Shown piece by piece: positions 17,930-32,091 of a stretch of DNA of 64,000 nt (positions within the stretch are counted from its first letter, which is position 1; each line of letters begins with the position of its first letter). Location of the stretch: NCBI RefSeq assembly GCF_000426885.1, contig NZ_AUGF01000016.1, positions 1 to 64,000 on the forward strand, read 5' to 3'. The stretch is from Moraxella caprae DSM 19149. Its GTDB lineage: Bacteria > Pseudomonadota > Gammaproteobacteria > Pseudomonadales > Moraxellaceae. The position numbers and the translations under genes were made by a program. The notes beneath the pieces were generated by a model. It ran no database searches. It was not told the DNA's origin and saw only the letters and a list, made by a program, of their open reading frames with translations.

Positions 17930-18100
17930 TAGGGCGTGCCTACCTTTGGTGTTTGCAATGAAAATGAGAAAAATCGCACGTTTTTCAAGAAAAAACGCAG
18001 ACTGATTGTCATTCTATCAGATTTTCATGCAAAAATTGGTTACAACGTTAAATTTTTATCATTATTTCTAAAAATGTTATCAATGTTCAACATTCCTTAT
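17930..18100 (+). repeat. Interspersed repeat family A, copy 2 (degenerate)
   Basis: It starts tagggcgtgcctacctttgg and keeps the cgcacgtttttcaag and tgtcattctatcag blocks. It lacks the gacttcgagccac block and the right terminal repeat, so it is a decayed or internally deleted copy. A 63-codon ORF over it is not credible. Confidence 0.7.
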
Positions 18101-18198
18101 CATTTATTTTTACAAAATTTATCATAAATAACTTACTCTTTTGGCAAAAATAGGCTAAAATATGCGGATATTTGTCCACTTTTTTGTGCTATTTTATC

Positions 18199-19296
18199 AT
18201 GCGACATCGTACCCTTGACCCCTTTTTTCGCCGAATACTGATTGTTCTGTTTTGGGTGGTTTTTCTGTATGCCCTATATCTCATGCGTGCGGTGATTTTG
18301 CCTTTTATGGCGGCGTTTATTTTGGCATACATGCTAAACCCTTTGGTGACACAATTGGCTCGCTACATGAATCGCATGCTTGCCATTGTGGTGGTGTATT
18401 TTGCTAGCATTCTACTGACGGGGGCGTTGGTTGTGTGGTTTGTGCCTGTATTGTGGCAACAAATCACTTTGGCGTGGGAGTCGCTACCCTTGCTTGTAGA
18501 GTGGTATAACACCACAGCAAGAACATGGATAAGTCAACACATGGGCGGACGTCCCATGCCCCTTGAAGTTGATGTCATCTCAAATGCACTCATTGAGTAC
18601 GCTCAGAAAAATTATCAGGTGGCGGATGCTCAGTCGCTCATCAAGCAGGCGCTAAACTCGGGCATGATGGTGGCAAATAATGTTGGCATGGCAGTAATGG
18701 TGCCGATATTGACGTTTTATTTTCTCATCGGCTGGCAAAAACGTCTAAATACATGGCTGCATGCCATGCCTAAACCACATCAGAAAAAAGCTCTAGAAAT
18801 CGCCAAAGACTGTGATACCACGCTCATGAACTTTATCAAGGGCCAGCTTAGTGTCATGTTACTGCTTGGGGCGATTTATGCCATACAACTACAACTCATC
18901 GGACTAAAATTCGGACTGCTCATCGGTGTCGGGGCAGGCGTAGCAAGTTTTGTGCCGTATTTGGGTTTTGGTGTGGGGATTATTGCGGCGATTGTCGTGG
19001 GGCTGTTCCAATTTGGTTTCGACCCCATTTATATCGGTCTTATCATTGGGGCGTTTATGGTCGGTCAAGCGATGGAAGGCTATGTATTACAGCCCCTACT
19101 GCTTGGCGATAAAATTGGACTGTCGCCATTGTGGGTGATTTTCTCGGTATTGGCAGGGGCGTCCTTGTTTGGCTTTGTTGGCATGCTCATCGCACTGCCC
19201 GTCTCAGCGATTTTAAATGTTCTGTTTCATCATGCGTACTGTGCTTATCTGAACAGTGATTGGTATAAAGGGCAAAAACAGCTAACGTTGTGGTGA
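18199..19296 (+). CDS. PerM/AI-2E family membrane protein
   Basis: The 365-residue protein has about seven or eight membrane segments. The family hallmarks are the central long soluble helix region and the C-terminal SFVPYLGFGVGIIAAIVVGL and VLQPLLLGDKIGLSPLWVIF blocks. Members such as PerM and YdiK have been described as permeases or exporters, but their substrates are mostly unknown. The ATG at 18199 is preferred over a TTG 27 bases upstream. Confidence 0.88.
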   Translation: MRHRTLDPFFRRILIVLFWVVFLYALYLMRAVILPFMAAFILAYMLNPLVTQLARYMNRMLAIVVVYFASILLTGALVVWFVPVLWQQITLAWESLPLLVEWYNTTARTWISQHMGGRPMPLEVDVISNALIEYAQKNYQVADAQSLIKQALNSGMMVANNVGMAVMVPILTFYFLIGWQKRLNTWLHAMPKPHQKKALEIAKDCDTTLMNFIKGQLSVMLLLGAIYAIQLQLIGLKFGLLIGVGAGVASFVPYLGFGVGIIAAIVVGLFQFGFDPIYIGLIIGAFMVGQAMEGYVLQPLLLGDKIGLSPLWVIFSVLAGASLFGFVGMLIALPVSAILNVLFHHAYCAYLNSDWYKGQKQLTLW

Positions 19297-19323
19297 ATTT
19301 TTAAACCACTATCGATTTTTAAA

Positions 19324-19366
19324 AAATAAATAATGGCAGGGTTTGTCTTTGCCATTATTTATTTTG
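19324..19366. terminator. Hairpin terminator after the PerM-like gene
   Basis: A perfect 15-bp inverted repeat, aaataaataatggca and tgccattatttattt, around an 11-base loop. The stem ends in T/A runs on both strands. Confidence 0.75.
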
Positions 19367-19436
19367 GGCGGTTATTTGGGTTTGGGTGTCAGATACGCTA
19401 TAATAGGCGGTTTTTGCTACTGTACTGACTTAACTG

Positions 19437-20933
19437 ATGAATATTTTTAACCACTTTACCAAAGACCAATGGTTCTCAAACGTCCGTGGCGATGTGCTGT
19501 CAGGGCTTGTGGTCGCCCTTGCTCTCATTCCAGAAGCAATTGCCTTTTCTATCATTGCAGGGGTTGACCCAAAAGTGGGGCTGTATGCGTCCTTTTGCAT
19601 TGCGGTGGTGATTAGCTTTTTTGGCGGTCGTCCTGCCATGATTTCGGCAGCCACAGGAGCGATGGCACTTGTCTTGGCAAGTCTTGTCAAAAATCATGGG
19701 CTAGAATATATGCTCGCCGCCACGCTACTGACAGGCGTGATACAAATCATTTTTGGCTTTTTAAAAGTCGGGTATCTTATGAAATTTGTCGCCCGTGCGG
19801 TGGTCGTGGGCTTTGTCAATGCGTTGGCGATATTGATTTTTATGGCACAACTGCCTGAGATTTTGGGACGTGGCATGACAACCTATGCCTTGATTGCACT
19901 CGGGCTTGGGATTATTTATGTCTTTCCTTATGCTCCCAAACTTGGCAAAATCCTGCCATCGCCCCTTATTACCATTGTCGCCTTGACCATCATCAGCGTG
20001 ATGATGGGGCTTGATGTGCGGACGGTGGGCGACATGGGCGAGTTGCCCGATACGTTGCCTGTGTTTTTGTTGCCTGACATTCCTTTGAATTTGGATACGC
20101 TGTGGATTATTTTGCCTTATGCACTTAGCCTATCGGCGGTGGGTCTGCTCGAATCCTTGATGACGGCAACCATCGTGGACGAGATGACCGACACCACAAG
20201 CGACAAAAACCAAGAATGTAAAGGACAAGGGGTTGCCAACATCGTAGCAGGATTATTTGGTGGCATGGCAGGCTGTGCGATGATTGGGCAGTCAGTCATC
20301 AACGTCAAATCAGGCGGTCGCACACGGCTATCCACGTTGTTGGCGGGTGTGATTTTGCTGATTATGGTCGTATTTCTGAGCGATGTATTAAGTGTCATTC
20401 CCATGCCAGCACTGGTGGCGGTGATGATTATGGTGTCCATCGGCACGTTTAATTGGCAGTCGGTCAAGGAGCTAAAAACGCACCCCTTGGGCTTTAATAT
20501 CGTCATGATTGCCACGGTCGCCATCGTGCTATATACCCACAACTTAGCCCTTGGCGTGGGGGCAGGCGTGCTACTTGCGTCTTTGTTTTTTGCCAACAAA
20601 ATCGGTCGCTTTATGTCGGTACAATCCTTACCCACGCCAGATGAGACCACGCTTGCCTATGGCGTGGTGGGGCAGGTATTTTTTGCCAGTGCTGACCGAT
20701 TTGTCGCTCAGTTTGATTTTGATAAGCCTGCTGAGGCGGTGAGCATTGATTTGACTTATGCTCATTTTTGGGACGTAACAGCCGTATCCGCCCTTGACAA
20801 AATCGTCATGAAATACCGCAAAAAAGGCGTATCAGTGGAAGTCTTTGGGCTAAATGAAGCGAGCAAAACTTTGGTGGATCAATTTGGCGTACATGACAAA
20901 CATGATGGCAAGGATATTATTTTTGAGCATTAG
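19437..20933 (+). CDS. SulP family anion transporter with STAS domain
   Basis: The 498-residue protein has about ten to twelve membrane segments beginning [20 protein letters not shown], the characteristic SulP start. A C-terminal STAS-like domain occupies about residues 400-498 ([20 protein letters not shown]). SulP proteins move sulfate, bicarbonate or dicarboxylates; the substrate here cannot be told. It is a single gene without close partners. Confidence 0.92.
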
Positions 20934-21040
20934 GGCGATATGACTTGCAAAACCGTCAAAAATTTGGTATATATAGCACATTTTTAAATCAGTTGAAAAC
21001 CACTGAGCGATTCTAGCAAACTTTGGGATACCAAGCTTAC

Positions 21041-21808
21041 ATGACCGACCTTTTTCAGTCCGCCCTAGACCTTGACGTACAAGAGGAACCTCGGCTTTCG
21101 GATTTTACGTCCGTGGGCTATCAAGCAGTCATCATCGCCACCCAAAAGCTCTGCCAAGGCGAGTTGCCTGAAATCTTTATTTATGGTAAAAAAGGCTCTG
21201 GCAAATCCCATCTCGCTCTCGCCATTTATAACGAATACACCAAAACAGGCAAAACCGCCATCAGTCTATCGCTTGACAAGATGATAGAGAGCGAGGGCGA
21301 TGACGCATCCGCCCTACAAGGCTTACAGCTGTTCAACCTTGTGATACTAGATGATGTCGAGGCGGTAGCACACAGTCATGAATGGCAAGAGGGGCTGTTT
21401 CATCTGATTAATGAAGTCAGACGTGAACAAAAACAGCTCGTGTTCCTAGCTAACGACCCTGCCCGTGAGCTGGACATTAACTTGCTTGACCTGCTCACAC
21501 GACTCTCGCTCGCTCCTGCCTTTAAACTGCCCGATGGCGACCGCCCTGCCGACCGTGAGGCGATGTTAAAGTCCATTCTAAGACGTAAAAACTGGCGACT
21601 GCCCCCTGTTATTTTTGAGTATCTGGTCAGCGATGGTCCTTATAATGCCACAGACATGATGAGCGTGCTAGACAGCATCTCGCCCCTGCTCACACGATTG
21701 GCACGCACGCCCGTGAGCAAAAAAACCTTAGAAGACACCAAAAAAATCATCGATAAAGAAACTCTACTTTTGGAGCTGGGCGACTACATTGATGACATGG
21801 ATGGCTGA
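21041..21808 (+). CDS. hda: DnaA-related regulatory protein Hda
   Basis: Hda promotes hydrolysis of DnaA-bound ATP after initiation, together with the replication clamp. The 255-residue product is a DnaA-like AAA+ protein: N-terminal clamp-binding-like segment MTDLFQSALDL, Walker A GKKGSGKSHLA, Walker B LVILDDVEAV, and a C-terminal lid. The ATG at 21041 is chosen because the segment LFQSALDL lies directly after it; a TTG 18 bases upstream is possible. Confidence 0.85.
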   Translation: MTDLFQSALDLDVQEEPRLSDFTSVGYQAVIIATQKLCQGELPEIFIYGKKGSGKSHLALAIYNEYTKTGKTAISLSLDKMIESEGDDASALQGLQLFNLVILDDVEAVAHSHEWQEGLFHLINEVRREQKQLVFLANDPARELDINLLDLLTRLSLAPAFKLPDGDRPADREAMLKSILRRKNWRLPPVIFEYLVSDGPYNATDMMSVLDSISPLLTRLARTPVSKKTLEDTKKIIDKETLLLELGDYIDDMDG

Positions 21809-21877
21809 TTTTGCTTTACCGATTTTAAATAATTAGCATTTTCTCACTTTCTCCAACCCCACCCAATAGGAAATACC

Positions 21878-22507
21878 ATGAAAAAATTAAGCCTACTGCT
21901 CGCTCTCGCACTTGCCACTCCTGCTTTTGCCGAGGTACGCCTGAACGTAGATGAGCATATTAAAGTAACCGCCATCAATGGGCAAGAGATTAAACACGGA
22001 GCCTTGCAACCACTCAAACGTGAGTTCACCCTTGACGCTGGTCGTCATGTCATTACCGCTCGCTATGACCGCTTATTTGACTTGCCCCGTGGCGAGCATG
22101 ATTACCTAAAATCAGGTAACGTTACCATCACCGCTGACCTAGCGGACAACCAAACTTATCAGCTGGTCATGCCAAATCAGCCAAGCAACTACCGTGATGC
22201 CAAAGAGTACGCCAAAGCCCCTACCCTTGCCATCAGCCAAAATGGCAAAGTGTTAGCTTCTGAGCAGACCGTAGAGAGTCGCACGGGCATTTTATCAACA
22301 CTAGGCGACAGCATTGGTGGACTGTTCGGTCGTGATGACGTCACCCGAGCCAACCAAAAAGCCATCGCCGCCCTTAACCAAGCCCCCACGCAGCCCACCA
22401 CTCCAACCATGGTCGCCCCCAAGGACAACTTAGACGGCTTTATGCAACTGTGGCTCAACGCTACTCCCGAAGAGCGTGAAAAAATCCGTCAATGGGTTGA
22501 AAAATGA
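21878..22507 (+). CDS. Periplasmic DUF2057 family protein
   Basis: The 209-residue product has a signal peptide (MKKLSLLLALALATPAFA, cleavage near residue 18) and then a DUF2057-like domain (LNVDEHIKVTAINGQEI, LDAGRHVITARYDRLFDL). The E. coli relative is YccT. A Thr/Pro-rich linker (about residues 167-180) leads to a short helical tail (TPEEREKIRQWVEK). The function of the family is not settled. Confidence 0.8.
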   Translation: MKKLSLLLALALATPAFAEVRLNVDEHIKVTAINGQEIKHGALQPLKREFTLDAGRHVITARYDRLFDLPRGEHDYLKSGNVTITADLADNQTYQLVMPNQPSNYRDAKEYAKAPTLAISQNGKVLASEQTVESRTGILSTLGDSIGGLFGRDDVTRANQKAIAALNQAPTQPTTPTMVAPKDNLDGFMQLWLNATPEEREKIRQWVEK

Positions 22508-22520
22508 TTTTAGGTATTGT

Positions 22521-22549
22521 AAAAAAGCTGTCTTTGGACGGCTTTTTTG
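22521..22549 (+). terminator. Terminator after the DUF2057 gene
   Basis: Stem aaaaaagctgtc/gacggctttttt with one wobble pair, loop tttg, then a T-run. Confidence 0.75.
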
Positions 22550-22759
22550 TTGGCTATAAACTGCATACGCCAAGGAGATGATTTTGAAATTAAGCAAAAA
22601 AACAATTCTCCATGGTTAAAGATATAATGATTAACTTGATTTGAATTTTCATTCTAAATAAATAATTTAAAAAGGATTATGTTAAATAAAATAATTTCCA
22701 CAACGCTCTAAAAGTTTGTTAAAATACAAAACACTGTTATATTATGATGTAGCCATATC

Positions 22760-23371
22760 ATGTCTGTTCATCAATTAAAAACTGCGTTTCAAAACAAACT
22801 TCGCCCCATCAGTAACACGCTGGTCAAACAAGGCTTCACCGCCAATCAAATCACCCTATCGGCGGTGATATTAAGCCTTATCATGGCTCATCTGATTGCC
22901 CGTCACGCAAAACACCATAAGGCTTATTGGTATCTACTACCCACAGGGCTGTTTGTCCGCATGGCAATGAATGCCATCGATGGCATGATGGCAAAAGAAC
23001 ACGGACAAGCCAGTACGCTCGGGGCATGGCTCAATGAAAGTGGCGATATGGTCTCAGACACCGCACTCTTTTTGGGGCTATTGCCACACACCAATCACCC
23101 TGCCCATCTTGTCTTCATCACCACCCTATCGATAGCAACAGAGCTAACCGCCATCATGGCAACCCTGCTCACGGGCGAGCGTGCCAATCATGGACCCTTG
23201 GGAAAAAGCGATCGTGCCTTGGCACTTGGGATATTTGGACTGATAAAGGGGCTGGATAAAGAGCTAAGCCATGAATGCCTAATCCTTATCATCGCCCAGT
23301 TGTTACTTATCAAAACCATCATCAATCGTGGGCAAGCCATCATCTGTCATCGCTCCACAAATCAACAGTAG
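22760..23371 (+). CDS. CDP-alcohol phosphatidyltransferase family protein (YnbA-like)
   Basis: Enzymes of this family move a phosphatidyl group from CDP-diacylglycerol to an alcohol. The 203-residue protein has about five or six membrane segments. The signature region is NAIDGMMAKEHG...GAWLNESGDMVSD: Asp74, Gly75, Ala78, Gly88 and Asp96 are kept, but the first and third aspartates of the usual D-x2-DG-x2-AR-G-x3-D-x3-D motif are Asn71 and Asn92, and Arg is Lys79. It heads a four-gene plus-strand group with a hydrolase-methyltransferase, patatin and SDR, like ynbABCD of E. coli. The alcohol is unknown. Confidence 0.82.
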   Translation: MSVHQLKTAFQNKLRPISNTLVKQGFTANQITLSAVILSLIMAHLIARHAKHHKAYWYLLPTGLFVRMAMNAIDGMMAKEHGQASTLGAWLNESGDMVSDTALFLGLLPHTNHPAHLVFITTLSIATELTAIMATLLTGERANHGPLGKSDRALALGIFGLIKGLDKELSHECLILIIAQLLLIKTIINRGQAIICHRSTNQQ

Positions 23372-23406
23372 TTTTGCAAGACCAACAAAGTTAATAAGGA
23401 TTTATC

Positions 23407-25206
23407 ATGCAACCCATCAGCACAGCAAATATTCATGAATATCACAGCACGTTTAATAGCTATGACGGCACAGCCATGTTCTATCGCTACTGGCTCACCG
23501 ACAAGCCAGAGCATGTCTATGACCATGATGGCGACCGTGATGACCTAAAAATCATCGTCATGCTCCATCGTGGGCATGAACACTCACAAAGGCTGACCGA
23601 CATGGCTCATGCCTTCGTCAAACAAGGCTATCAAGTCTTTGCATGGGACGCACGGGGCAACGGACGTTCAGGCGGTGAGCGAGACCATGCCGAGAGCTTT
23701 GGGCAATTGGTGCGTGATTTAGATGAATTTTTAAAAGTCATCAAAGCCCAAACGCACGCCAATGATGAGCAGATTGTACTCATCGCCAGTAGTTTGGGAG
23801 CGGTCATCGCCAGTGCTTATGTGCATGACTACGCCCCCAACATTCGTGGCATGATACTCGGCACGCCTGCCCTTGCCATTCGTCTGTATGTCCCCTTTGC
23901 CCTACCAGCACTCAAAGTCGCCAAAAAACTCGGGGTCATGTCTCGTGTGTCAAGCTACGTCAAAGCCCAAGTACTCACACACGACAAAGAAGCCCAAAGC
24001 CAATACCACGCTGACAAACTCATCTCATCAAGTATCTCTCGCGACCTGCTCATCGACTCCCTACAAACAGGGGCACGCCTGCTCGATGACGCAGGTGCCA
24101 TCACCACACCGACCATGATACTGTGTGCAGGTCAGGATTATGTCGTGGACAAAGAAGCAATACGCACCTTTTATGACCGCATTCGTTCGCCCATTAAGCG
24201 TTGGGCGCATTATCCCAAAAGTTTTCACGCCATTTTTCATGAAGTCAATAAACAAGACGTCTTTGCCGACTGTTTGGCATTTACCGATGAGCTTTTTGCC
24301 AGTCCGCCCCAAACTGTGGACTTGACATCTGCCCACAACCCAACCACGCACGCCCAAAGTTTTAGTAAAGACAAAGTCGATACACTCATAGCAAAAGGTT
24401 TTAACCCCAGTTTTGCCATGACCAAATTCATGATAGAACGCTTTGGATACGTCAGTGATGGAGTATCAGCGGGGGTAACACATGGCTTTGATTCGGGCGT
24501 GTCGCTAGATAAGGTTTATCAAAATGAGCCACGTGGTAAGTTCGGTGTGGGCAGACTCATTGATAATTTTTATTTAAACAACATCGGTTGGCGTGGCATT
24601 CGCATTCGCAAAGCTCATCTGTTAGAATTGGCAGGGATTGCCATTGACAAACACCTTAACGCACACCCAGACAAACAGCCCATAAAACTCTTGGACATCG
24701 CCAGTGGTAATGGTTATTATGCGTTTGAACTTCTGCATAAATATCCCACACTGACCGCCACGCTACGAGATTATGATTCACACAATGTCAGCGTCATGAA
24801 GGATAAAGCTGTCAAACAAGGTCTGTCATCACGAGCGACCATCAGCCAGCAAGACGCTTTTTGTGCTGACAGCTACCACTCATCTGATAACGACATCGCC
24901 ATCGTCTCAGGGCTGTTTGAGTTGTTCTCAGATAACACCCTTATCCAAACCGCCCTAACTGGTATGCACCGAGAATTATCAGACGGCGGTTATCTGCTAT
25001 ACACCAATCAGCCGTGGCACCCCGAACAAGAATTCATCGGCAAGACCCTAAACAGCCATCAAGGCACAGATTGGGTCATGCGATGTCGCTCACAAGCCGA
25101 AATTGACCAATTGGTTGCACAGGCAGGCTTTAAAAAGATTGATATGCGAATTGATGCGTTTGGCATTTTTAGCGTGTCTTTGGCAGTCAAGCTCCCGACT
25201 GACTAA
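23407..25206 (+). CDS. Alpha/beta hydrolase-methyltransferase fusion (YnbC-like)
   Basis: The 599-residue protein has two domains. Residues about 1-310 are a serine hydrolase of the monoglyceride-lipase type: DARGNGRSGG, nucleophile Ser129 in IASSLGA, the acid in AGQDYVV and the histidine in KSFHAIFHE. Residues about 400-599 are a class I SAM-dependent methyltransferase with LLDIASGNGYYAFELL. E. coli YnbC has the same architecture and sits in a cluster with ynbA, ynbB and ynbD. It starts 35 bp after the phosphotransferase gene. Confidence 0.87.
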   Translation: MQPISTANIHEYHSTFNSYDGTAMFYRYWLTDKPEHVYDHDGDRDDLKIIVMLHRGHEHSQRLTDMAHAFVKQGYQVFAWDARGNGRSGGERDHAESFGQLVRDLDEFLKVIKAQTHANDEQIVLIASSLGAVIASAYVHDYAPNIRGMILGTPALAIRLYVPFALPALKVAKKLGVMSRVSSYVKAQVLTHDKEAQSQYHADKLISSSISRDLLIDSLQTGARLLDDAGAITTPTMILCAGQDYVVDKEAIRTFYDRIRSPIKRWAHYPKSFHAIFHEVNKQDVFADCLAFTDELFASPPQTVDLTSAHNPTTHAQSFSKDKVDTLIAKGFNPSFAMTKFMIERFGYVSDGVSAGVTHGFDSGVSLDKVYQNEPRGKFGVGRLIDNFYLNNIGWRGIRIRKAHLLELAGIAIDKHLNAHPDKQPIKLLDIASGNGYYAFELLHKYPTLTATLRDYDSHNVSVMKDKAVKQGLSSRATISQQDAFCADSYHSSDNDIAIVSGLFELFSDNTLIQTALTGMHRELSDGGYLLYTNQPWHPEQEFIGKTLNSHQGTDWVMRCRSQAEIDQLVAQAGFKKIDMRIDAFGIFSVSLAVKLPTD

Positions 25207-25208
25207 TC

Positions 25209-26312
25209 ATGACCACAAGCACCACACCGCCCCTTACAAAGCCCCTTTACCGCCGAGCCCTACTCATGGCAGGCGGAGGGTTACGCTTTGGTTATTATTT
25301 GGGGATTTATCAGGCGTTGTGTGATACAGGCAGGCGACCTGATTTGGTGATTGGTAACTGTGGAGGAGCAATGGCAACCGCCCTGTTGTTAGAAGCCCTG
25401 TCCGATTCGTCAGAGACAAGCCGGCAGTCGCTTATCACTGTGATGAACAGTCGCTTGCCTTATGAAAGTATCGGTAGCATTACTGACAAACGCTCTGATG
25501 GTTATGGGCAGTATCTCATGCCTGCCCTAAAACGTTGGTGTGGTTATCAACTCTCTCATCTACTTAACCGTCCTATCCGCCACACTCATCTGACGGACAA
25601 ACTCATCGGCAACCTCACCCATCACGCCATCGGTCATGTGGACGGCGAAACGCACACGCCCTGTTGGCGTTTTGATGAGCCCACCTCCAAGCCGTCCGCC
25701 ACACACGCTCTGATTCTCGCCAGTCAGCTGAATCGTATTCACGCCCATCATCAATGGCAAGGGCTACTGTGGACGTCAAACCCTCTGCTTTGGCAAGCCC
25801 TTGAAGAGCTAACCCCAACCAACATCATGGCACGCTACTCACCGCTCATTTGTGCCGATTATCATTTGACCAATCTGCCCTTGTCCGTCATGGTGCGTGC
25901 GTCCATCACAGACATGTATTATTTACCTCCCCTATGTCATGATGACCACTGTCTTATGGGCGGAGTCATCGATTTGACGCCCATTGAGCTTGCCTGTCAG
26001 CTTGCCGATGTGGTGTATGCCGAACCAAAATCTCCCTTTGGTCGTGTGCTTGCCGAACCTGCCATTCATCACGTCTTTGGCTTCTCGCCCAATGCTCGCC
26101 TGCAAGATGTGCATGATTATATGGCAAATAACCCCCAAATACGCCATTTAGATACCAAAGATTATCGCCGTGTCCGCCCTTTATTTGACAAAAAACCCAA
26201 TCTTCGACAAGGGCGTATTTTGGCATATCATCATGATTTTACTACTTTTGTCCAAATCACTGCCGAGCAGTTTGCCTATGGCTATGATGTGGGACTGCGT
26301 TGTGATGAGTGA
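25209..26312 (+). CDS. Patatin-like protein with altered active site
   Basis: The 367-residue product resembles patatin phospholipases. It has the glycine-rich loop ALLMAGGGLRFGYYLGIYQAL and the nucleophile-elbow region at residues 49-53. That elbow reads G-N-C-G-G in place of G-x-S-x-G, so the catalytic Ser is Cys51. The usual DGG of the dyad reads MGG in CLMGGVIDLTP. The protein either uses cysteine or is not a lipase. It starts two bases after the YnbC-like gene, so they are translated together. Confidence 0.78.
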   Translation: MTTSTTPPLTKPLYRRALLMAGGGLRFGYYLGIYQALCDTGRRPDLVIGNCGGAMATALLLEALSDSSETSRQSLITVMNSRLPYESIGSITDKRSDGYGQYLMPALKRWCGYQLSHLLNRPIRHTHLTDKLIGNLTHHAIGHVDGETHTPCWRFDEPTSKPSATHALILASQLNRIHAHHQWQGLLWTSNPLLWQALEELTPTNIMARYSPLICADYHLTNLPLSVMVRASITDMYYLPPLCHDDHCLMGGVIDLTPIELACQLADVVYAEPKSPFGRVLAEPAIHHVFGFSPNARLQDVHDYMANNPQIRHLDTKDYRRVRPLFDKKPNLRQGRILAYHHDFTTFVQITAEQFAYGYDVGLRCDE

Positions 26313-26392
26313 ATTGGGTAATTATTTTAAGAGAAAGTTAAAATTTTACTCTATAAATCAATTACTTATATTAAATTAAAAGGCATAAATAA

Positions 26393-27217
26393 ATGAACAC
26401 CCCCCAAACCATCATCATCTTTGGCGGTACGAGCGGTATCGGTCTTGCCCTTGCCAAATGGCACGCCCGTCAAGGCAATCTGGTTACGGTCATTGGTAGC
26501 AATCCCCACAAAGTACAAGCCATCTTAGAGCTTGACAACATCACCGCCATCTGCTGTGATGTCCGCTGTCGTACTCAGAGAGATGAACTCTTGAAACGGC
26601 TAGATACGCCTTTTTCTCAGCTGATTTATAGCATTGGTAAATATTATCCTGAACGCAAACAAGCCCTTAGTGCCGATGAAAGCCATGATATGCTCATGCT
26701 AAATTTGCAAGCCTTTCAAGCGGTGTTTGCTTGGGCAAGTGAGCGTCTTATTCACAAAAAACAAGCTCAAGAAAAACAAACCATTCATCGCACCACGCCT
26801 GCCACGCCCACAAGTTTGGTCGCCATCTCATCTGTGGCAGGGCTATTTGACTTTCAAGGGGCAAGCCTATACGCTCACTGCAAACGTGCGATGATACAAG
26901 ACACGCTTGCCTATCGCATGGCACTTGCTCCATTTGGCATACAAGTCATCGCCATCGCTTGTGGCTATGTGGATACGGCGACATTAAGTCAGTTGCATGG
27001 CGGACGAGCGGATAAGCCATGCGGACGAGCGGATAAGCCATTTTTAATCAGCGAACAAGAAACCGTCCATCAAATCATTCACGCCATACATAACGACATC
27101 GCTCTACACGTCTTTCCCAAATCCATGAAAGCCATCGTCAAGCTCCTAACCGCCCTGCCTCGTCCCTTACTTGCCAAAGTCATGCAATTACAGTACCACC
27201 ATCAAGACCGCAAATAG
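26393..27217 (+). CDS. Short-chain dehydrogenase/reductase
   Basis: The 274-residue SDR has the nucleotide-binding motif GGTSGIG (residues 11-17), a catalytic Ser in AISSVAG and Tyr-x3-Lys in SLYAHCKRA. A 21-bp tandem duplication (27000-27041) adds one extra GRADKP unit in frame near residue 205. The C-terminal 30 bases overlap the 3' end of the convergent cdsA-like gene. As the last gene of the plus-strand lipid group it may act on a lipid head group or an acyl chain; that is inference. Confidence 0.83.
   Translation: MNTPQTIIIFGGTSGIGLALAKWHARQGNLVTVIGSNPHKVQAILELDNITAICCDVRCRTQRDELLKRLDTPFSQLIYSIGKYYPERKQALSADESHDMLMLNLQAFQAVFAWASERLIHKKQAQEKQTIHRTTPATPTSLVAISSVAGLFDFQGASLYAHCKRAMIQDTLAYRMALAPFGIQVIAIACGYVDTATLSQLHGGRADKPCGRADKPFLISEQETVHQIIHAIHNDIALHVFPKSMKAIVKLLTALPRPLLAKVMQLQYHHQDRK
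27000..27041 (+). repeat. 21-bp tandem duplication in the SDR gene
   Basis: Two exact copies of a 21-bp unit beginning gcggacgagcgg lie head to tail, keeping the reading frame and repeating seven residues. Confidence 0.9.
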
Positions 27218-27901
27218 TGGCACGCTCACCAGTAGGCTGTCCATTCTATCTAAAAGTCCGCCATGCCCTGCCAGCCACGCCCCCATGTCCTTGACCTGAT
27301 GACGGCGTTTGACGCTCGATTCTAACAAATCGCCAACAATACCGCATGCCCCAAGCGACACCGCCAGTAGTACCAACTGACCCATGCCAAAATCAGTCAA
27401 AACTCGCCCCACAGGCAGGCTTAGCACCATCATCAACAGCACGCCAAACACCGCCCCTTCAATGGTCTTATTAGGGCTAAGATTGGGGGCAAGTTTACTG
27501 GCAAACAGGCGATGACCAAAAGCTCGCCCCATGAGATATTGGCACACATCACAAACCTGCACCGCAAATAGGACAAACAACAGCACAGATAAAGGCTTGA
27601 CGGTCAAGGCGAGCCACACCCACGCCAGCCCAAACAGTCCGACACAGCCCACAAATAGCCCATCACGCCATGTCCACACCTTAATCACTCTCCACAGCTC
27701 CCACAGGGCGATACCACTCATCAGCATGCCCAATGTCGCCACGCCATATCGCCCAAGCATAAAGGCAAGCCACAGCACTGCCAACAGCCAAAACCATGAC
27801 CGCACTGTTTGATAAACTCCCCGACATTTGCCCAAGCATTTGATAAACAACATGATCAGCAAGACAACCGTCATTAAGATTAATAATAAATATTCACTCA
27901 T
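27188..27901 (-). CDS. CDP-diglyceride synthetase (CdsA/YnbB-like)
   Basis: The enzyme makes CDP-diacylglycerol from phosphatidate and CTP. The 237-residue membrane protein has about seven hydrophobic segments and the full CDS signature near the C-terminus: SSVKRRHQVKD followed by GHGGLLDRMD. The ATG at 27901 overlaps the upstream stop (ATGA) and has GGAGG nine bases before it. It is smaller than typical housekeeping CdsA, and its neighbours match YnbB, so it is probably a second, pathway-specific enzyme. Confidence 0.85.
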   Translation of the reverse strand: MSEYLLLILMTVVLLIMLFIKCLGKCRGVYQTVRSWFWLLAVLWLAFMLGRYGVATLGMLMSGIALWELWRVIKVWTWRDGLFVGCVGLFGLAWVWLALTVKPLSVLLFVLFAVQVCDVCQYLMGRAFGHRLFASKLAPNLSPNKTIEGAVFGVLLMMVLSLPVGRVLTDFGMGQLVLLAVSLGACGIVGDLLESSVKRRHQVKDMGAWLAGHGGLLDRMDSLLVSVPLFAVLMVVL

Positions 27902-28656
27902 GCCAATAACCTCCACGCACGGTGCTTGCCATAGGACGACAGCACAGAATCTATCATCTCTTTATCCTGCACGGACAGCCGATGTGGACAAATGCTCTGT
28001 TGTAAGGCAAGCAGGCATATCATCACCGCCACACTCCTAGATTGTCCCATCGCACATTGGCAGATAATGAGTGTATTAGGCTCGCCTGCTTGCTTGATAT
28101 CATCATGTAATGCCTTGATATGATTCATGATAGAGTCGTCAAAAGACTGTAAATCCATCACGCCAAGATTGACATACCGCCATTTTGTCGCTGTTCTCTT
28201 ATCCGCCAGTAGCCTAGCATGGGCAAAATCAGATGCCATCTCCGCACAGACATCTACCCACAGTATCTGCCGATATCGCCCAGCGTATTGGCTTAACTCA
28301 TCTAGCACATCATCAGACAGATGACCGATTGCCATAATGGTAAACGCTTGGGTGTGAATCACTCGCCTGCCAATGTCATGACACACAAAATGACACGCCC
28401 ACGCCAGTCGCCACATGAGCTTATAAATGATGATAATAGGTAAACCCAATCCGTACGCACTGGGACGAAATGCACCAACATGATGTTTATCCGTCTGTTT
28501 GGCTAATAGAATAGTTATCCATGACGGCTTGGCATAGAGCCACGCCACCGAGAACAGACCCAAACAGCCATACATGCCCATAAGTTTTGCCATCATTGCC
28601 CACGCCGTACCTTGATAACCTACCAAGACAGGCACGACCGCCCACCCCAAAACCAC
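27898..28656 (-). CDS. Dual-specificity phosphatase part of a YnbD-like protein
   Basis: The 252-residue product has two or three N-terminal hydrophobic segments and a C-terminal dual-specificity phosphatase domain. The active site is C-x5-R in ICQCAMGQSRSVAV, preceded by a WVDVCAE region that should hold the general acid loop. In E. coli YnbD the PAP2 and DSP domains form one chain; here they are in two frames overlapping by 37 bp. The start would be GTG at 28656. One extra G in the GGGG run near 28640 would join the two. Confidence 0.8.
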   Translation of the reverse strand: MVLGWAVVPVLVGYQGTAWAMMAKLMGMYGCLGLFSVAWLYAKPSWITILLAKQTDKHHVGAFRPSAYGLGLPIIIIYKLMWRLAWACHFVCHDIGRRVIHTQAFTIMAIGHLSDDVLDELSQYAGRYRQILWVDVCAEMASDFAHARLLADKRTATKWRYVNLGVMDLQSFDDSIMNHIKALHDDIKQAGEPNTLIICQCAMGQSRSVAVMICLLALQQSICPHRLSVQDKEMIDSVLSSYGKHRAWRLLA

Positions 28657-29324
28657 AGCACCCCAAGCGTGATAAACTTCATCATCGCTCGCCCTGTGAT
28701 GTATGGCAAGTCATGAAGCCATCGCTCCGCAACCAATACCACTACCGCAAGCGCAAGCCCTGCGACCACGTCCGCCACGTGATGTTGCCAAGTAAAAAGC
28801 GTTGCTCCTGCTATCGCTACACAGATAAGACTTAGTCCCACACGATACAGACCACGCCACCGCCCTTGCACCACATGCCACAAACTCACCCCAAACAGCA
28901 GTGCATAGCAGGCGTGCAAAGATGGCAGTTGATTATAAGGCTTATCCACGAGCGACAACAGCTCATACGCCCACCGCCACTGCTCCGACATGACAGGTCT
29001 ATCACAGGCAAACACCAAAGGATAAGCATAAAAGCACAGGCACGCCACCAACGTCCCAAGCACCAAACGGTGCAACAGCCGAGACAGCATGGCAGACGAC
29101 ACCACATAAAAACTCAGCACAAACAGTACAAAGGATAAACTATAAGGCACTATCGTCCACGCCACAAATGGCACGACATCATAGCGACTTGCCACCGTCC
29201 CCACCGCTGTTGGTGTGTGCGACATCAAAGCGTGCGTATAGGCATTGGTTAGGGGGTATGCTAGCCCAAATACCACCAATGTCTTAACAAGTGCCGTCGT
29301 TCGCTGTTTTAGGTCATCATTCAT
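28620..29324 (-). CDS. PAP2 phosphatase part of a YnbD-like protein
   Basis: The 234-residue membrane protein belongs to the PAP2 phosphatase family: LPSLHA and then TWQHHVADVVAG correspond to the second and third phosphatase motifs. PAP2 enzymes remove phosphate from lipids such as phosphatidate or phosphatidylglycerophosphate. The ATG at 29324 (MNDDLKQR) is chosen because hydrophobic sequence begins soon after; an ATG 30 bases upstream is possible. It leads a minus-strand operon with the phosphatase and cdsA-like genes. The short out-of-frame tail (GGRSCLSW) suggests a frameshift from a fused ancestor. Confidence 0.8.
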   Translation of the reverse strand: MNDDLKQRTTALVKTLVVFGLAYPLTNAYTHALMSHTPTAVGTVASRYDVVPFVAWTIVPYSLSFVLFVLSFYVVSSAMLSRLLHRLVLGTLVACLCFYAYPLVFACDRPVMSEQWRWAYELLSLVDKPYNQLPSLHACYALLFGVSLWHVVQGRWRGLYRVGLSLICVAIAGATLFTWQHHVADVVAGLALAVVVLVAERWLHDLPYITGRAMMKFITLGVLWFWGGRSCLSW

Positions 29325-29354
29325 GATTGCCAAATATGTACAAATAAACTGCAT

Positions 29355-29814
29355 TAAATGCCAAATTCACCCCAAAGTCAAGTAAAAATAGCCCAAGCAA
29401 AAACAAATCCACACCCATTTATACACCTATTTTTTACCCTATTTTAAAAAATCCGACTGGTTGGTTTTTTTATAATTTTTATAAAATTTATCAAAAATTT
29501 GATAATCGTCTGTCCGACAAATTGATGAAAATTTGCCCAATTTCTTTACAAAATTTTCTTAAAAAATTTTATCCATCTCTTGACAAGCCTCAAAGCCTTA
29601 TCCTGTCTTTTTTGTACGTTTTTCAAGTTTGGTTAAAATGACAAAATCACAGATTGGCACAAAATACAAGCTAGTATTTTAAAAATTTTTAGGCTATATT
29701 GTGCTACCTTAGAAATGCATTACTACATCTAGTGGTTAATTTTTAAATAGAAAAATCGCTAAGTCATTGAGATTTGGTAATTTTTTACAATTTACAACAA
29801 AAACGGGTGATTTT
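29355..29814. other. AT-rich spacer upstream of nrdA
   Basis: No gene is visible in this 460-bp stretch. TTGACA occurs at 29580-29585, and ctatattgtg (about 29693) and actacatctagtgg (about 29722) lie roughly three helical turns apart, which recalls paired NrdR boxes. Neither box is a good match to the consensus. Confidence 0.35.
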
Positions 29815-32091
29815 ATGACACACATCGACCAAATCAAAGTCAAAAAAAGAGACGGCACCTTTGAACCCATCAACCTTGATAAGATTCACAAGGTCATCAC
29901 ATGGGCAGCCAAAGGATTAGACAACGTCTCCGTGTCGCAAGTGGAACTAAAATCACACATTCAGTTTTATGACGGCATTGCTACCCGTGACATTCATGAG
30001 ACCATCATCAAGGCGGCGGCGGACTTAATCTCAGCCGAAACGCCTGATTATCAATATCTGGCGGCTCGTCTTGCCATTTTTCATCTACGTAAGATTGCCT
30101 ATGGCGACTATGAACCGCCACATCTGTATGACCATGTCGCCTGCTTGACCGAAATGGGCAAATACGACAAGCACATTTTGGCAGATTATGACCGTGCCGA
30201 ATTTGATGAACTAAACGCCTACATCGACCACGAACGTGACATGAACCTTGCCTATGCAGCGGTTGAGCAGATGATGGGCAAATATCTCGTCCAAGACCGT
30301 GTCACCAAAAAAGTCTATGAAAGCCCCCAGTTTTTGTACATTTTGGTCGGCATGTGCCTATTTGCCAGCTATGATAAAGCGGTACGACTGGACTACATCA
30401 AGCGTTTTTATGACGCCACATCCAACTTCTACATCTCACTGCCTACCCCCATCATGTCAGGCGTGCGCACCCCCACCCGTCAGTTTAGCTCATGCGTACT
30501 CATCGAATGTGGCGACAACCTAGACAGCATCAACGCCACCACATCCGCCATCGTCCGCTACGTCTCACAGCGTGCGGGTATTGGCGTGAATGCAGGGGCG
30601 ATTCGTGCGTTGGGCTCACCCATTCGTGGCGGTGAAGCTCAGCACACAGGCTGTATTCCATTTTTTAAAATGTTCCAAGCAGCGGTCAAATCCTGCTCAC
30701 AAGGCGGTGTGCGTGGTGGGGCAGCGACTTTGTTTTATCCGCTGTGGCATTTAGAGGTCGAGAGCCTACTTGTCCTAAAAAACAACCGTGGCGTCGAAGA
30801 CAACCGTGTCCGTCACATGGATTATGGCGTACAGATTAACAAAACACTCTACACCCGACTCATCAAAAACGAAGACATTACCCTATTCTCCCCATCTGAT
30901 GTGGCAGGGCTTTATGACGCATTTTTTGCTGACCAAGCCGAATTTGAACGTCTCTACACCCTATATGAAAATGACAAGAGCATTCGCAAACGCAAAATCC
31001 CTGCCCGTGAGCTGTTTAGTCTCATGCTCCAAGAGCGTGCCAGCACGGGGCGTATCTATGTCCAAAACGTTGATCACTGCAACACGCACAGCCCCTTTGA
31101 CCCGTCTGTTGCCCCTGTTCGCCAATCCAACCTATGCATGGAAATCGCCCTACCCACCAAACCGCTTGATAATATCAATGATGAGCATGGTGAGATTGCC
31201 CTATGTACGTTGTCTGCCATCAATCTAGGCAAGATTGACAAGCTAGAAGAGATGAGAGAGCCTGCCGAGCTGATTGTGCGTGCGTTGGACGCTTTGCTTA
31301 ACTATCAAGACTATCCTGTCATCGCCGCCAAAAATGGTAGCATGAACCGCCGTACACTGGGTGTGGGTGTGATTAACTACGCCTATTATCTTGCCAAAAA
31401 CGGCACACGCTACTCAGACATGGGGGCGATTGGGCTGACTCACCGCACTTTTGAAGCGTTCCAGTATTATCTGCTAGAAGCGTCGAACAAACTTGCCCAA
31501 GAAAAAGGGGCTTGCCCTGCCTTTGGCGAGACGACATACAGTCAAGGTATTTTGCCGATTGATACCTACAAGGCGGATTTGGATAACATCTGCAATGAGC
31601 CACTACACCTAGACTGGGAAGCCCTGCGTGCCAACATCAAACAGCACGGTCTGCGTAACTCCACCTTGTCGGCTCTCATGCCATCTGAGACATCTAGCCA
31701 AATTGCCAACGCCACCAACGGTATCGAACCGCCACGGGGCTTGGTGTCGGTCAAGCAGTCAAAGGACGGCATTTTAAAACAAGTCGTGCCTGACATCGAG
31801 AATTTGGCAAATAAATACGAGCTGTTATGGCAAATGCCCGACAATAACGGCTACCTAAAACTCGTTGGCATCATGCAAAAATTCATCGACCAGTCCATCT
31901 CTGCCAACACCAACTATGACCCCAGCAAGTTTGAAGGCGGAAAAGTCCCCATGAAAATCATGATTCAAGACCTGCTTACCGCTTATAAACTGGGCGTAAA
32001 AACCCTATATTATCACAACACCCGAGACGGAGCAGACGACAGCCAAGGCGAGTTAGATGACGGCTGTGCAGGCGGGGCGTGTAAGTTGTGA
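29815..32091 (+). CDS. nrdA: Ribonucleoside-diphosphate reductase class Ia, alpha subunit
   Basis: NrdA reduces ribonucleoside diphosphates to deoxyribonucleotides. The 758-residue product has an N-terminal ATP cone (VKKRDGTFEPINLDKIHKV), the substrate-binding and thiyl-radical core with NLCMEI and SALMPSETSSQIANATNG, and the C-terminal redox pair in CAGGACKL. The ATG at 29815 gives a length close to E. coli NrdA (761); a TTG 48 bases upstream is unlikely. The beta subunit gene nrdB is not next to it in this window. Confidence 0.96.
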   Translation: MTHIDQIKVKKRDGTFEPINLDKIHKVITWAAKGLDNVSVSQVELKSHIQFYDGIATRDIHETIIKAAADLISAETPDYQYLAARLAIFHLRKIAYGDYEPPHLYDHVACLTEMGKYDKHILADYDRAEFDELNAYIDHERDMNLAYAAVEQMMGKYLVQDRVTKKVYESPQFLYILVGMCLFASYDKAVRLDYIKRFYDATSNFYISLPTPIMSGVRTPTRQFSSCVLIECGDNLDSINATTSAIVRYVSQRAGIGVNAGAIRALGSPIRGGEAQHTGCIPFFKMFQAAVKSCSQGGVRGGAATLFYPLWHLEVESLLVLKNNRGVEDNRVRHMDYGVQINKTLYTRLIKNEDITLFSPSDVAGLYDAFFADQAEFERLYTLYENDKSIRKRKIPARELFSLMLQERASTGRIYVQNVDHCNTHSPFDPSVAPVRQSNLCMEIALPTKPLDNINDEHGEIALCTLSAINLGKIDKLEEMREPAELIVRALDALLNYQDYPVIAAKNGSMNRRTLGVGVINYAYYLAKNGTRYSDMGAIGLTHRTFEAFQYYLLEASNKLAQEKGACPAFGETTYSQGILPIDTYKADLDNICNEPLHLDWEALRANIKQHGLRNSTLSALMPSETSSQIANATNGIEPPRGLVSVKQSKDGILKQVVPDIENLANKYELLWQMPDNNGYLKLVGIMQKFIDQSISANTNYDPSKFEGGKVPMKIMIQDLLTAYKLGVKTLYYHNTRDGADDSQGELDDGCAGGACKL

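What the first reader, a model, noticed from the sequence alone, without database searches (positions are those of the whole stretch)
22760..29354. Accessory phospholipid locus resembling ynbABCD, extended by a patatin and an SDR
Seven genes in two convergent operons encode a CDP-alcohol phosphotransferase, an alpha/beta hydrolase-methyltransferase fusion, a patatin-like protein, an SDR, a CdsA-type CDP-diglyceride synthetase, a dual-specificity phosphatase and a PAP2 phosphatase. E. coli ynbA, ynbB, ynbC and ynbD have the same domain set but no assigned pathway. The set suggests synthesis of a phosphorylated lipid, removal of its phosphate and later tailoring. The addition of patatin and SDR in this organism may point to the chemistry.
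Basis: partly seen in the sequence, partly recalled or inferred. Interest (0 to 1): 0.75.

Follow-up and report, generated by a model that had tools for sequence, protein, structure and literature searches.

The report
Moraxella version of ynb/arc1 lipid locus
A Moraxella genome carries, as one removable block, an extended version of the little-understood E. coli ynb lipid genes; a homologous gene cluster in Pseudomonas helps cells survive membrane-cutting toxins of rival bacteria, so the pathway can now be tested for a role in membrane protection.

Summary
The locus is real, but it holds six genes, not seven: the phosphatase and PAP2 ORFs are halves of one ynbD gene, frame-broken here and intact in M. 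lacunata. Homologues of ynbA, ynbB and ynbD lie within 8 kb of ynbC in 91, 76 and 71 of 97 distinct loci. A close relative lacks exactly 22691-29442, so both convergent operons come and go together.

Published deletion primers (5 of 8 typed segments found) show that Pseudomonas aeruginosa arc1, which helps resist type VI lipase effectors, is a homologous locus with a PlsC acyltransferase and a small membrane protein added. No paper in the open library holds both names.

Two features are unusual. YnbA has Asn for two of the four metal-binding Asp of its class. The patatin has Cys for the catalytic Ser and a hydrophobic residue for the Asp in 23 of 23 rows. The patatin/SDR loci form one clade, without PlsC.

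Best reading: an accessory CDP-DAG route to a minor phospholipid that helps membranes withstand phospholipases. The product and every reaction are unproven.

The parts
22691..29442 (.). whole removable block holding both convergent operons
   Evidence: G001 (flanks 94-96% identical in DNA) is contiguous across this block: window 18063-22690 and 29443-32087 abut at L197 4599/4598; no target-site duplication seen by eye
22760..23371 (+). ynbA (203 aa): CDP-alcohol phosphotransferase relative with N-D-N-D instead of D-D-D-D metal motif
   Evidence: PF01066; 41% to E. coli YnbA; closest solved structures are PIP synthases 6h53/6h5a, E 1e-16; motif counts; the host's other two CDP-OH enzymes are D-D-D-D
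23407..25206 (+). ynbC (599 aa): monoacylglycerol-lipase-like hydrolase fused to class I methyltransferase
   Evidence: PF12146, PF12147; 40% to E. coli YnbC; hydrolase closest to a bacterial monoacylglycerol lipase, E 1e-25; Ser 96 (one gap), Asp 97, His 97 of 97 and SAM motif kept; methyltransferase model pLDDT 94
25209..26312 (+). patatin-fold protein (367 aa) with Cys51 in place of catalytic Ser and no catalytic Asp
   Evidence: PF01734; 23 of 23 rows Cys and L/M/I/F; PlpD alignment; fold match PlpD Z 17.5, rmsd 3.7, 229 aligned
26393..27217 (+). short-chain dehydrogenase/reductase (274 aa), GxxxGIG and YxxxK motifs present by eye
   Evidence: PF00106; found in 18 of 19 distinct patatin loci and 0 of 78 others with a profile seeded from the window SDR alone
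27188..27916 (-). ynbB (242 aa): CdsA-type CTP:phosphatidate cytidylyltransferase paralogue
   Evidence: PF01148; KR....KD.G.....GHGG..DR.D signature kept; a second, higher-scoring CTP_transf_1 gene lies elsewhere in the genome
27898..28656 (-). C-terminal half of the frame-broken ynbD: DSP (Cys-based) phosphatase domain
   Evidence: P-loop Cys and Arg and the acid Asp conserved
28620..29354 (-). N-terminal half of the frame-broken ynbD: PAP2_3 (AUR1-like) domain
   Evidence: PF14378; His-His-Asp residues kept in the 69 rows that hold this domain; the frame break lies in the overlap with the DSP half

Best explanation
This is the Moraxella variant of the widespread ynb/arc1-type accessory phospholipid pathway, carried as a discrete 6.75-kb block. 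Proposed order: YnbB makes CDP-diacylglycerol; YnbA passes its phosphatidyl group to an alcohol, probably a phosphorylated one; the DSP half of YnbD removes the head-group phosphate; the AUR1-like PAP2 half moves or removes the head group; YnbC trims (monoacylglycerol-lipase-like domain) and methylates. In about half of the loci seen a PlsC acyltransferase may supply or rework the acyl chains; in the Moraxella/Psychrobacter/Vibrio xiamenensis clade the Cys-patatin and SDR stand in its place. The minor lipid made, or the repair it allows, helps the envelope survive phospholipase attack. Shown here: gene content, co-occurrence, gain or loss as one block, the motif changes, and homology with arc1. 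Shown by others in P. aeruginosa: arc1A contributes to resistance to type VI lipase effectors. Inferred: every reaction, the order, the product, and that the role holds in Moraxella. With ynbD broken, this strain may make an unfinished product or none.
For: Domains and intact catalytic residues of YnbB, YnbC and both YnbD halves. Co-occurrence in 97 distinct loci; YnbA-YnbC fused in the Psychrobacter clade and, separately, in a Planctomycetia MAG; PAP2-DSP joined in 70 ORFs. One-block absence in G001. Paralogues of CdsA and of CDP-OH enzymes elsewhere in the genome. arc1A = ynbA homologue and arc1F = ynbB homologue by published primer positions, with gene order A, C, D, small membrane protein, PlsC, B. 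Phenotypes: PMC8926400 (sections 5 and 6 and passages read) and PMC12663445 (section 10 and passages read).
Against: No lipid product has been reported for any member in what I read. arc1A is called auxiliary to arc3A, and in the 2022 study no single B. thailandensis effector mutation changed the arc1 defect. YnbA lacks two canonical metal ligands, so the expected reaction is not assured. ynbD is broken here and in G011 (2 of 4 Moraxella loci), and 14 of 19 patatin loci have no ynbD within 8 kb; unlinked copies turned up in 2 of 5 Psychrobacter-type genomes searched.
Confidence: 0.5

Rival explanations
1. Salvage rather than synthesis: the locus takes up toxic breakdown products (lysophospholipids, monoacylglycerols, fatty acids) left by phospholipases. 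YnbC hydrolyses or methylates them, PlsC or the patatin re-acylates, and YnbA/B return the backbone to phospholipid.
For: YnbC hydrolase is closest to monoacylglycerol lipases and hits lysophospholipase L2 far below its cut-off (54.9 of 362 bits); the PlsC cluster lies in 51 of 97 loci; the arc1A phenotype is seen with lipase effectors.
Against: A second CDP-DAG synthase and a special head-group transferase are not needed for salvage; the 2022 passages I read give lysolipid measurements for arc3, and I saw none for arc1.
Confidence: 0.22
2. Inositol-lipid pathway like Bacteroides BT_1522/1523/1525: YnbA makes phosphatidylinositol phosphate, the phosphatase yields PI, and the AUR1-like PAP2 domain moves phosphoinositol to another lipid.
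For: YnbA's nearest solved structures and best NCBIfam hits are PIP / archaetidylinositol-phosphate synthases; the PAP2 half hits the phosphoinositol dihydroceramide synthase model weakly (E 1.2e-4); a like set of activities in PMC9246714 (passages read).
Against: No inositol-phosphate synthase (PF07994) found in this genome at E 0.001, while the control set rings in Bacteroides and four others; scores are far below NCBIfam cut-offs; D1 and D3 are Asn; BT_1525 is PgpA-like, not DSP.
Confidence: 0.1
3. Backup supply of the MPIase precursor GlcNAc-PP-diacylglycerol by YnbB, the other genes being modifiers.
For: Over-expressed E. coli YnbB raises MPIase (PMC6362211 passages).
Against: The same paper finds no significant MPIase change in the ynbB knockout and calls the effect marginal or auxiliary; it does not explain YnbA, YnbC, YnbD or their tight linkage.
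Confidence: 0.08
4. A decaying, non-functional island in this strain.
For: ynbD frame broken; patchy presence (4 of 22 same-genus genomes); partial loci in some Psychrobacter.
Against: All other genes are open and keep the residues listed; the M. lacunata locus at the same site has every gene open.
Confidence: 0.1

Closest known systems
E. coli K-12 ynbABCD
   Same: YnbA, YnbB, YnbC, YnbD homologues, 23-43% identical; same N-D-N-D motif in YnbA
   Different: One co-directional operon; no patatin, SDR or PlsC beside it; ynbD intact
Pseudomonas aeruginosa arc1A-F (PA2541-36)
   Same: YnbA, YnbC, YnbD and YnbB homologues in one cluster
   Different: Has PlsC and a small membrane protein, no patatin or SDR; under Gac/Rsm control (PMC8926400)
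Bacteroides inositol-lipid cluster BT_1522-1526
   Same: CDP-alcohol transferase + head-group phosphatase + AUR1-like transferase logic
   Different: Phosphatase is PgpA-like; has inositol-phosphate synthase, not found here; I saw no YnbC in its description
PlpD / bacterial patatin-like phospholipases
   Same: Patatin fold, GGGxR oxyanion motif, nucleophile-elbow position
   Different: Cys for Ser and hydrophobic for Asp in 23 of 23 rows
Mycobacterial PIP synthase PgsA1
   Same: Sequence of class I CDP-alcohol phosphotransferase (that 6h53/6h5a are this enzyme is recalled); D2 and D4 kept
   Different: D1 and D3 are Asn in YnbA, plus an Arg four residues before D1 in 89 of 91 rows

Membership tests
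ynb-type locus | ynbC fusion gene with ynbA beside it | tested here: met
ynb-type locus | ynbB (CdsA paralogue) in the locus | tested here: met
ynb-type locus | ynbD (PAP2 + DSP) in the locus | tested here: inconclusive
   Both domains are present but the frame is broken in the window; intact at the same place in M. lacunata. 71 of 97 loci have the PAP2 domain within 8 kb
arc1 (Pseudomonas form) | PlsC acyltransferase and small membrane protein in the cluster | tested here: not met
   0 of 19 distinct patatin loci, the window among them, have either; so it is a homologue of arc1, not an arc1
arc1 (Pseudomonas form) | protects against phospholipase effectors | not testable with these tools
   reported for P. 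aeruginosa arc1A
Class I CDP-alcohol phosphotransferase | D1xxD2G..A..G..D3xxxD4 with four Asp as metal ligands | tested here: not met
   D1 and D3 are Asn: N at D3 in 91 of 91 rows, at D1 in 90 with one gap; motif definition from PMC6506517 (passages)
Class I CDP-alcohol phosphotransferase | sequence similarity over the catalytic core | tested here: met
   PF01066 32 bits, cut-off 22; PDB hits to 1e-16
Patatin-like phospholipase | Ser-Asp catalytic dyad | tested here: not met
Patatin-like phospholipase | patatin fold | tested here: met
CdsA / CDP-DAG synthase | C-terminal CDS signature (pattern recalled) | tested here: met
PAP2_3 / AUR1-like | His-His-Asp residues (triad recalled from AUR1 and sphingomyelin synthase) | tested here: met
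Bacteroides-type inositol lipid pathway | inositol-phosphate synthase in the genome | tested here: not met
   no PF07994 match at E 0.001
Known anti-phage defence systems (PADLOC) | match to a system's protein models | tested here: inconclusive
   0 families at E 0.01 for 6 of 7 proteins; one weak methyltransferase-domain hit (24 bits) for YnbC

The most novel reading that the evidence does not exclude
The Moraxella/Psychrobacter/Vibrio block is a mobile lipid-armour cassette in which a patatin fold has become a cysteine acyl-transferase that replaces PlsC, and the N-D-N-D YnbA class works with an altered metal site (perhaps one metal plus the conserved Arg). Together they make a phospholipase-resistant lipid, switched on and off through slippage in ynbD.
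Probability: 0.13. Interest if true: 0.82.

Novelty: new variant of a known kind. Interest (0 to 1): 0.6.

Why it matters
The ynb operon of E. coli K-12 has, as far as my searches show, no assigned pathway. Its homology with arc1 gives it a phenotype to test in a laboratory strain. The YnbA substitution is a clean question about how far the two-metal mechanism of CDP-alcohol phosphotransferases can be altered, in a family with genetic evidence of function. A conserved patatin with Cys and no Asp, tied to one locus, is a candidate for a changed activity in a fold best known for serine lipases.

Tried and rejected
Rejected: seven separate genes (the DSP and PAP2 ORFs are one gene). Rejected: a plain patatin lipase. 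Rejected: locus genes standing in for missing housekeeping genes (a second CdsA-type and two other CDP-OH genes are present). Not supported: de novo inositol; a known phage-defence system. Considered: that patatin replaces PlsC. 0 of 19 against 51 of 78 loci looks strong, but the tree shows the patatin loci as one clade, so it is a single event and weak as statistics. Considered: phase variation. A poly-G run in ynbD differs in length between two Moraxella genomes and goes with a broken frame in one, but only one genome per species is held. The methyltransferase fold search gave many class I methyltransferases (best: 3ocj, Z 23.5, rmsd 3.4, 250 aligned, titled only as a possible exported protein) and did not name a substrate. 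The promoter scan found more matches than shuffles (24 against a mean of 11.2), the terminator scan did not (6 against 7.0); neither, nor the repeat scan, was decisive. A search on Cys/pseudoenzyme patatins returned 2 papers, seen as listings only, neither on this by title.
Full report
What is there. The genome is 2.60 Mb in 103 contigs; the closest named relative by YnbC is Moraxella lacunata (98%). ynbA-ynbC-patatin-SDR run on the + strand, ynbB and ynbD on the - strand. The DSP and PAP2 ORFs overlap in different frames. The M. lacunata genome (L033/L039) has one 485-aa PAP2-DSP protein there, like E. coli YnbD, and 70 ORFs in the 102 loci examined join these domains (repeats and one partial ORF included). 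So ynbD is frame-broken in the window. In G011, a different Moraxella, ynbD is also broken, at another place, where a G-run is longer than in its relative G016, whose frame is open. That is a lead for length switching, not proof.

One removable unit. In G001, whose flanks are 94-96% identical in DNA, window 18063-22690 and 29443-32087 are contiguous (L197 positions 4599/4598). The missing stretch is 22691-29442; by eye I saw no target-site duplication. Among the 22 same-genus genomes (96 genomes in all), 4 have full-length YnbC: G000, G002, G011 and G016. In G011 the ynb locus (C16) and nrdA (C10) are on different contigs, whereas in the window and in G002 they lie close together.

Co-occurrence. 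Five repeats were dropped, leaving 97, some cut by contig ends. Within 8 kb of ynbC: ynbA 91, ynbB 76, PAP2 71, DSP 70, PlsC cluster 51, patatin 19, SDR 18, small membrane protein 17. Control: in the 275 kb of the 102 loci lying more than 8 kb away there were 2 hits (1 ynbA, 1 ynbB) to the eight profiles used (ynbA, ynbB, two YnbC domains, PAP2, DSP, patatin, SDR). The profiles were grown from these same loci. The PlsC cluster was made by BLAST linkage; the three members checked by Pfam are PF01553. YnbA and YnbC are one protein in 19 of the 102 loci (repeats included): 18 in the Psychrobacter clade and one in a Planctomycetia MAG, L059. Hosts include Pseudomonadota, Verrucomicrobiota, Planctomycetota, Acidobacteriota and Bacteroidota.

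How common. In 390 genomes of the order, 23 have YnbC at E 1e-60 and 6 have the patatin at E 1e-10. All 6 are among the 23 and each patatin match lies within 30 bases of the YnbC match. In 369 genomes of the class, 10 have YnbC and 1, the window's own, has the patatin. Among the 102 loci the patatin form outside Moraxellaceae was seen only in Vibrio xiamenensis.

Homology with arc1. PMC8926400 names PA2541-36 arc1A-F, a Gac/Rsm-controlled cluster that contributes to survival under type VI attack; the authors note phospholipid-type genes in it (sections 5 and 6 read). Segments of their deletion primers lie at the start and end of the ynbA homologue and at the start of the ynbB homologue in G449 (1 of 25 genomes of its genus with the first primer; 5 of 8 typed segments found). 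Between them lie ynbC, ynbD, a 150-aa membrane-like protein and PlsC, six genes in all, as in arc1; the four inner names are inferred from position. PMC12663445 reports that arc1A deletion sensitises to lipase effectors of V. cholerae and A. baylyi, in an auxiliary way (section 10 read). Neither paper's main text contains 'ynb'. Of the 10 papers in the open library holding two or more of six names, none has both an arc1 and a ynb name. Subscription papers are mostly not held.

Active sites. PMC6506517 (passages) defines D1xxD2G..AR..G..D3xxxD4: in M. tuberculosis PgsA1 the first metal is held by D1, D2, D3, the second by D3 and D4, and D4 is the presumed base. In YnbA, over 91 distinct loci, D1 is Asn in 90 (one gap), D3 Asn in 91, D2 Asp in 90 (one gap), D4 Asp in 91, with an Arg four residues before D1 in 89. 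The host's two other CDP-OH enzymes read D-D-D-D. YnbA is therefore a coherent subclass, not a decayed copy. The published arc1A deletion speaks for function; the paper says the defect of each such single deletion was partially restored by complementation. YnbB keeps the CDS signature. YnbC keeps Ser in 96 (one gap), Asp in 97 and His in 97 of 97 rows, and its SAM motif. For YnbD, 70 rows were aligned, 68 joined proteins plus the two window halves: PAP2 His-His-Asp and the DSP Cys and Asp stand in 69 each, the odd row being the window half without that domain; the DSP Arg stands in all.

Patatin. The oxyanion GGGxR is kept in 19 of 19 distinct sequences, but the Ser of GxSxG is Cys and the Asp of DGG is Leu, Met, Ile or Phe in 23 of 23 rows, 19 of them distinct. 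PlpD aligns with its Ser and Asp at these places. The model is moderate (pLDDT 72.9, pTM 0.83); Cys51 sits between a strand (46-49) and a helix (52-64), as in a nucleophile elbow. Best fold matches are PlpD (Z 17.5, rmsd 3.7, 229 aligned), then CapE and CapV entries; Foldseek TM-scores are middling (0.40 / 0.55 for PlpD). The invariant residues include no His. Whether it is a cysteine acyl-transferase or a non-catalytic lipid binder is open.

Tree. A YnbC tree of 97 rows (quick method) puts the 19 patatin loci in one supported group of 21 rows with two patatin-less members, L040 and L056. L054 and L056 are flagged as long branches that meet. The patatin/SDR state is thus compatible with one origin, and its exclusion of PlsC counts as one event.

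Gaps. ynbD lies within 8 kb in only 5 of 19 patatin loci. Of five Psychrobacter-type genomes searched, two (G053, G430) have ynbD on another contig and three have none at E 1e-5. No inositol-phosphate synthase was found in the window's genome. No product is known to me, and transfer of the arc1 role to Moraxella is inference. In the 2022 study no single effector mutation changed the arc1 defect, so lipase defence may not be its only role.

Verdict. An accessory phospholipid locus of known kind, here in a distinct variant, with a named homologous defence cluster. The link, the YnbA motif and the Cys-patatin are the parts worth a specialist's time.

Noticed in passing
27000-27041: Perfect 21-base tandem duplication inside the SDR gene; the SDR is 274 aa here and 267 in M. 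lacunata.
   Followed up: no
L034 3663-5110 and L035 11451-12893: G-run of different length inside ynbD of two Moraxella genomes, with the frame broken in one and open in the other: candidate phase variation.
   Followed up: partly
L054 and L055: Vibrio xiamenensis holds the patatin-type locus on two contigs that are identical over the 20 kb compared: a duplication or an assembly artefact.
   Followed up: partly
L059 9152-11752: YnbA-YnbC fusion in a Planctomycetia MAG, apart from the Psychrobacter fusion in the tree.
   Followed up: partly
L112 14943-15746: Lysobacter locus has a second CDP-OH enzyme whose motif reads N-D-S-D.
   Followed up: no
L145 10533-10985 and relatives: Small membrane-like protein of about 150 aa in 17 loci (G449 and its family, Gilliamella, Hymenobacter, Lysobacter); the one member scanned has no Pfam match; by position it would be Arc1D.
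   Followed up: partly
window 23407-25206, residues 409-537: Weak PADLOC hit of the YnbC methyltransferase domain to mad2 (24 bits), probably generic.
   Followed up: no
L040 / L155: Psychrobacter coccoides keeps only a fused YnbA-YnbC without patatin, SDR, ynbB or ynbD nearby.
   Followed up: partly
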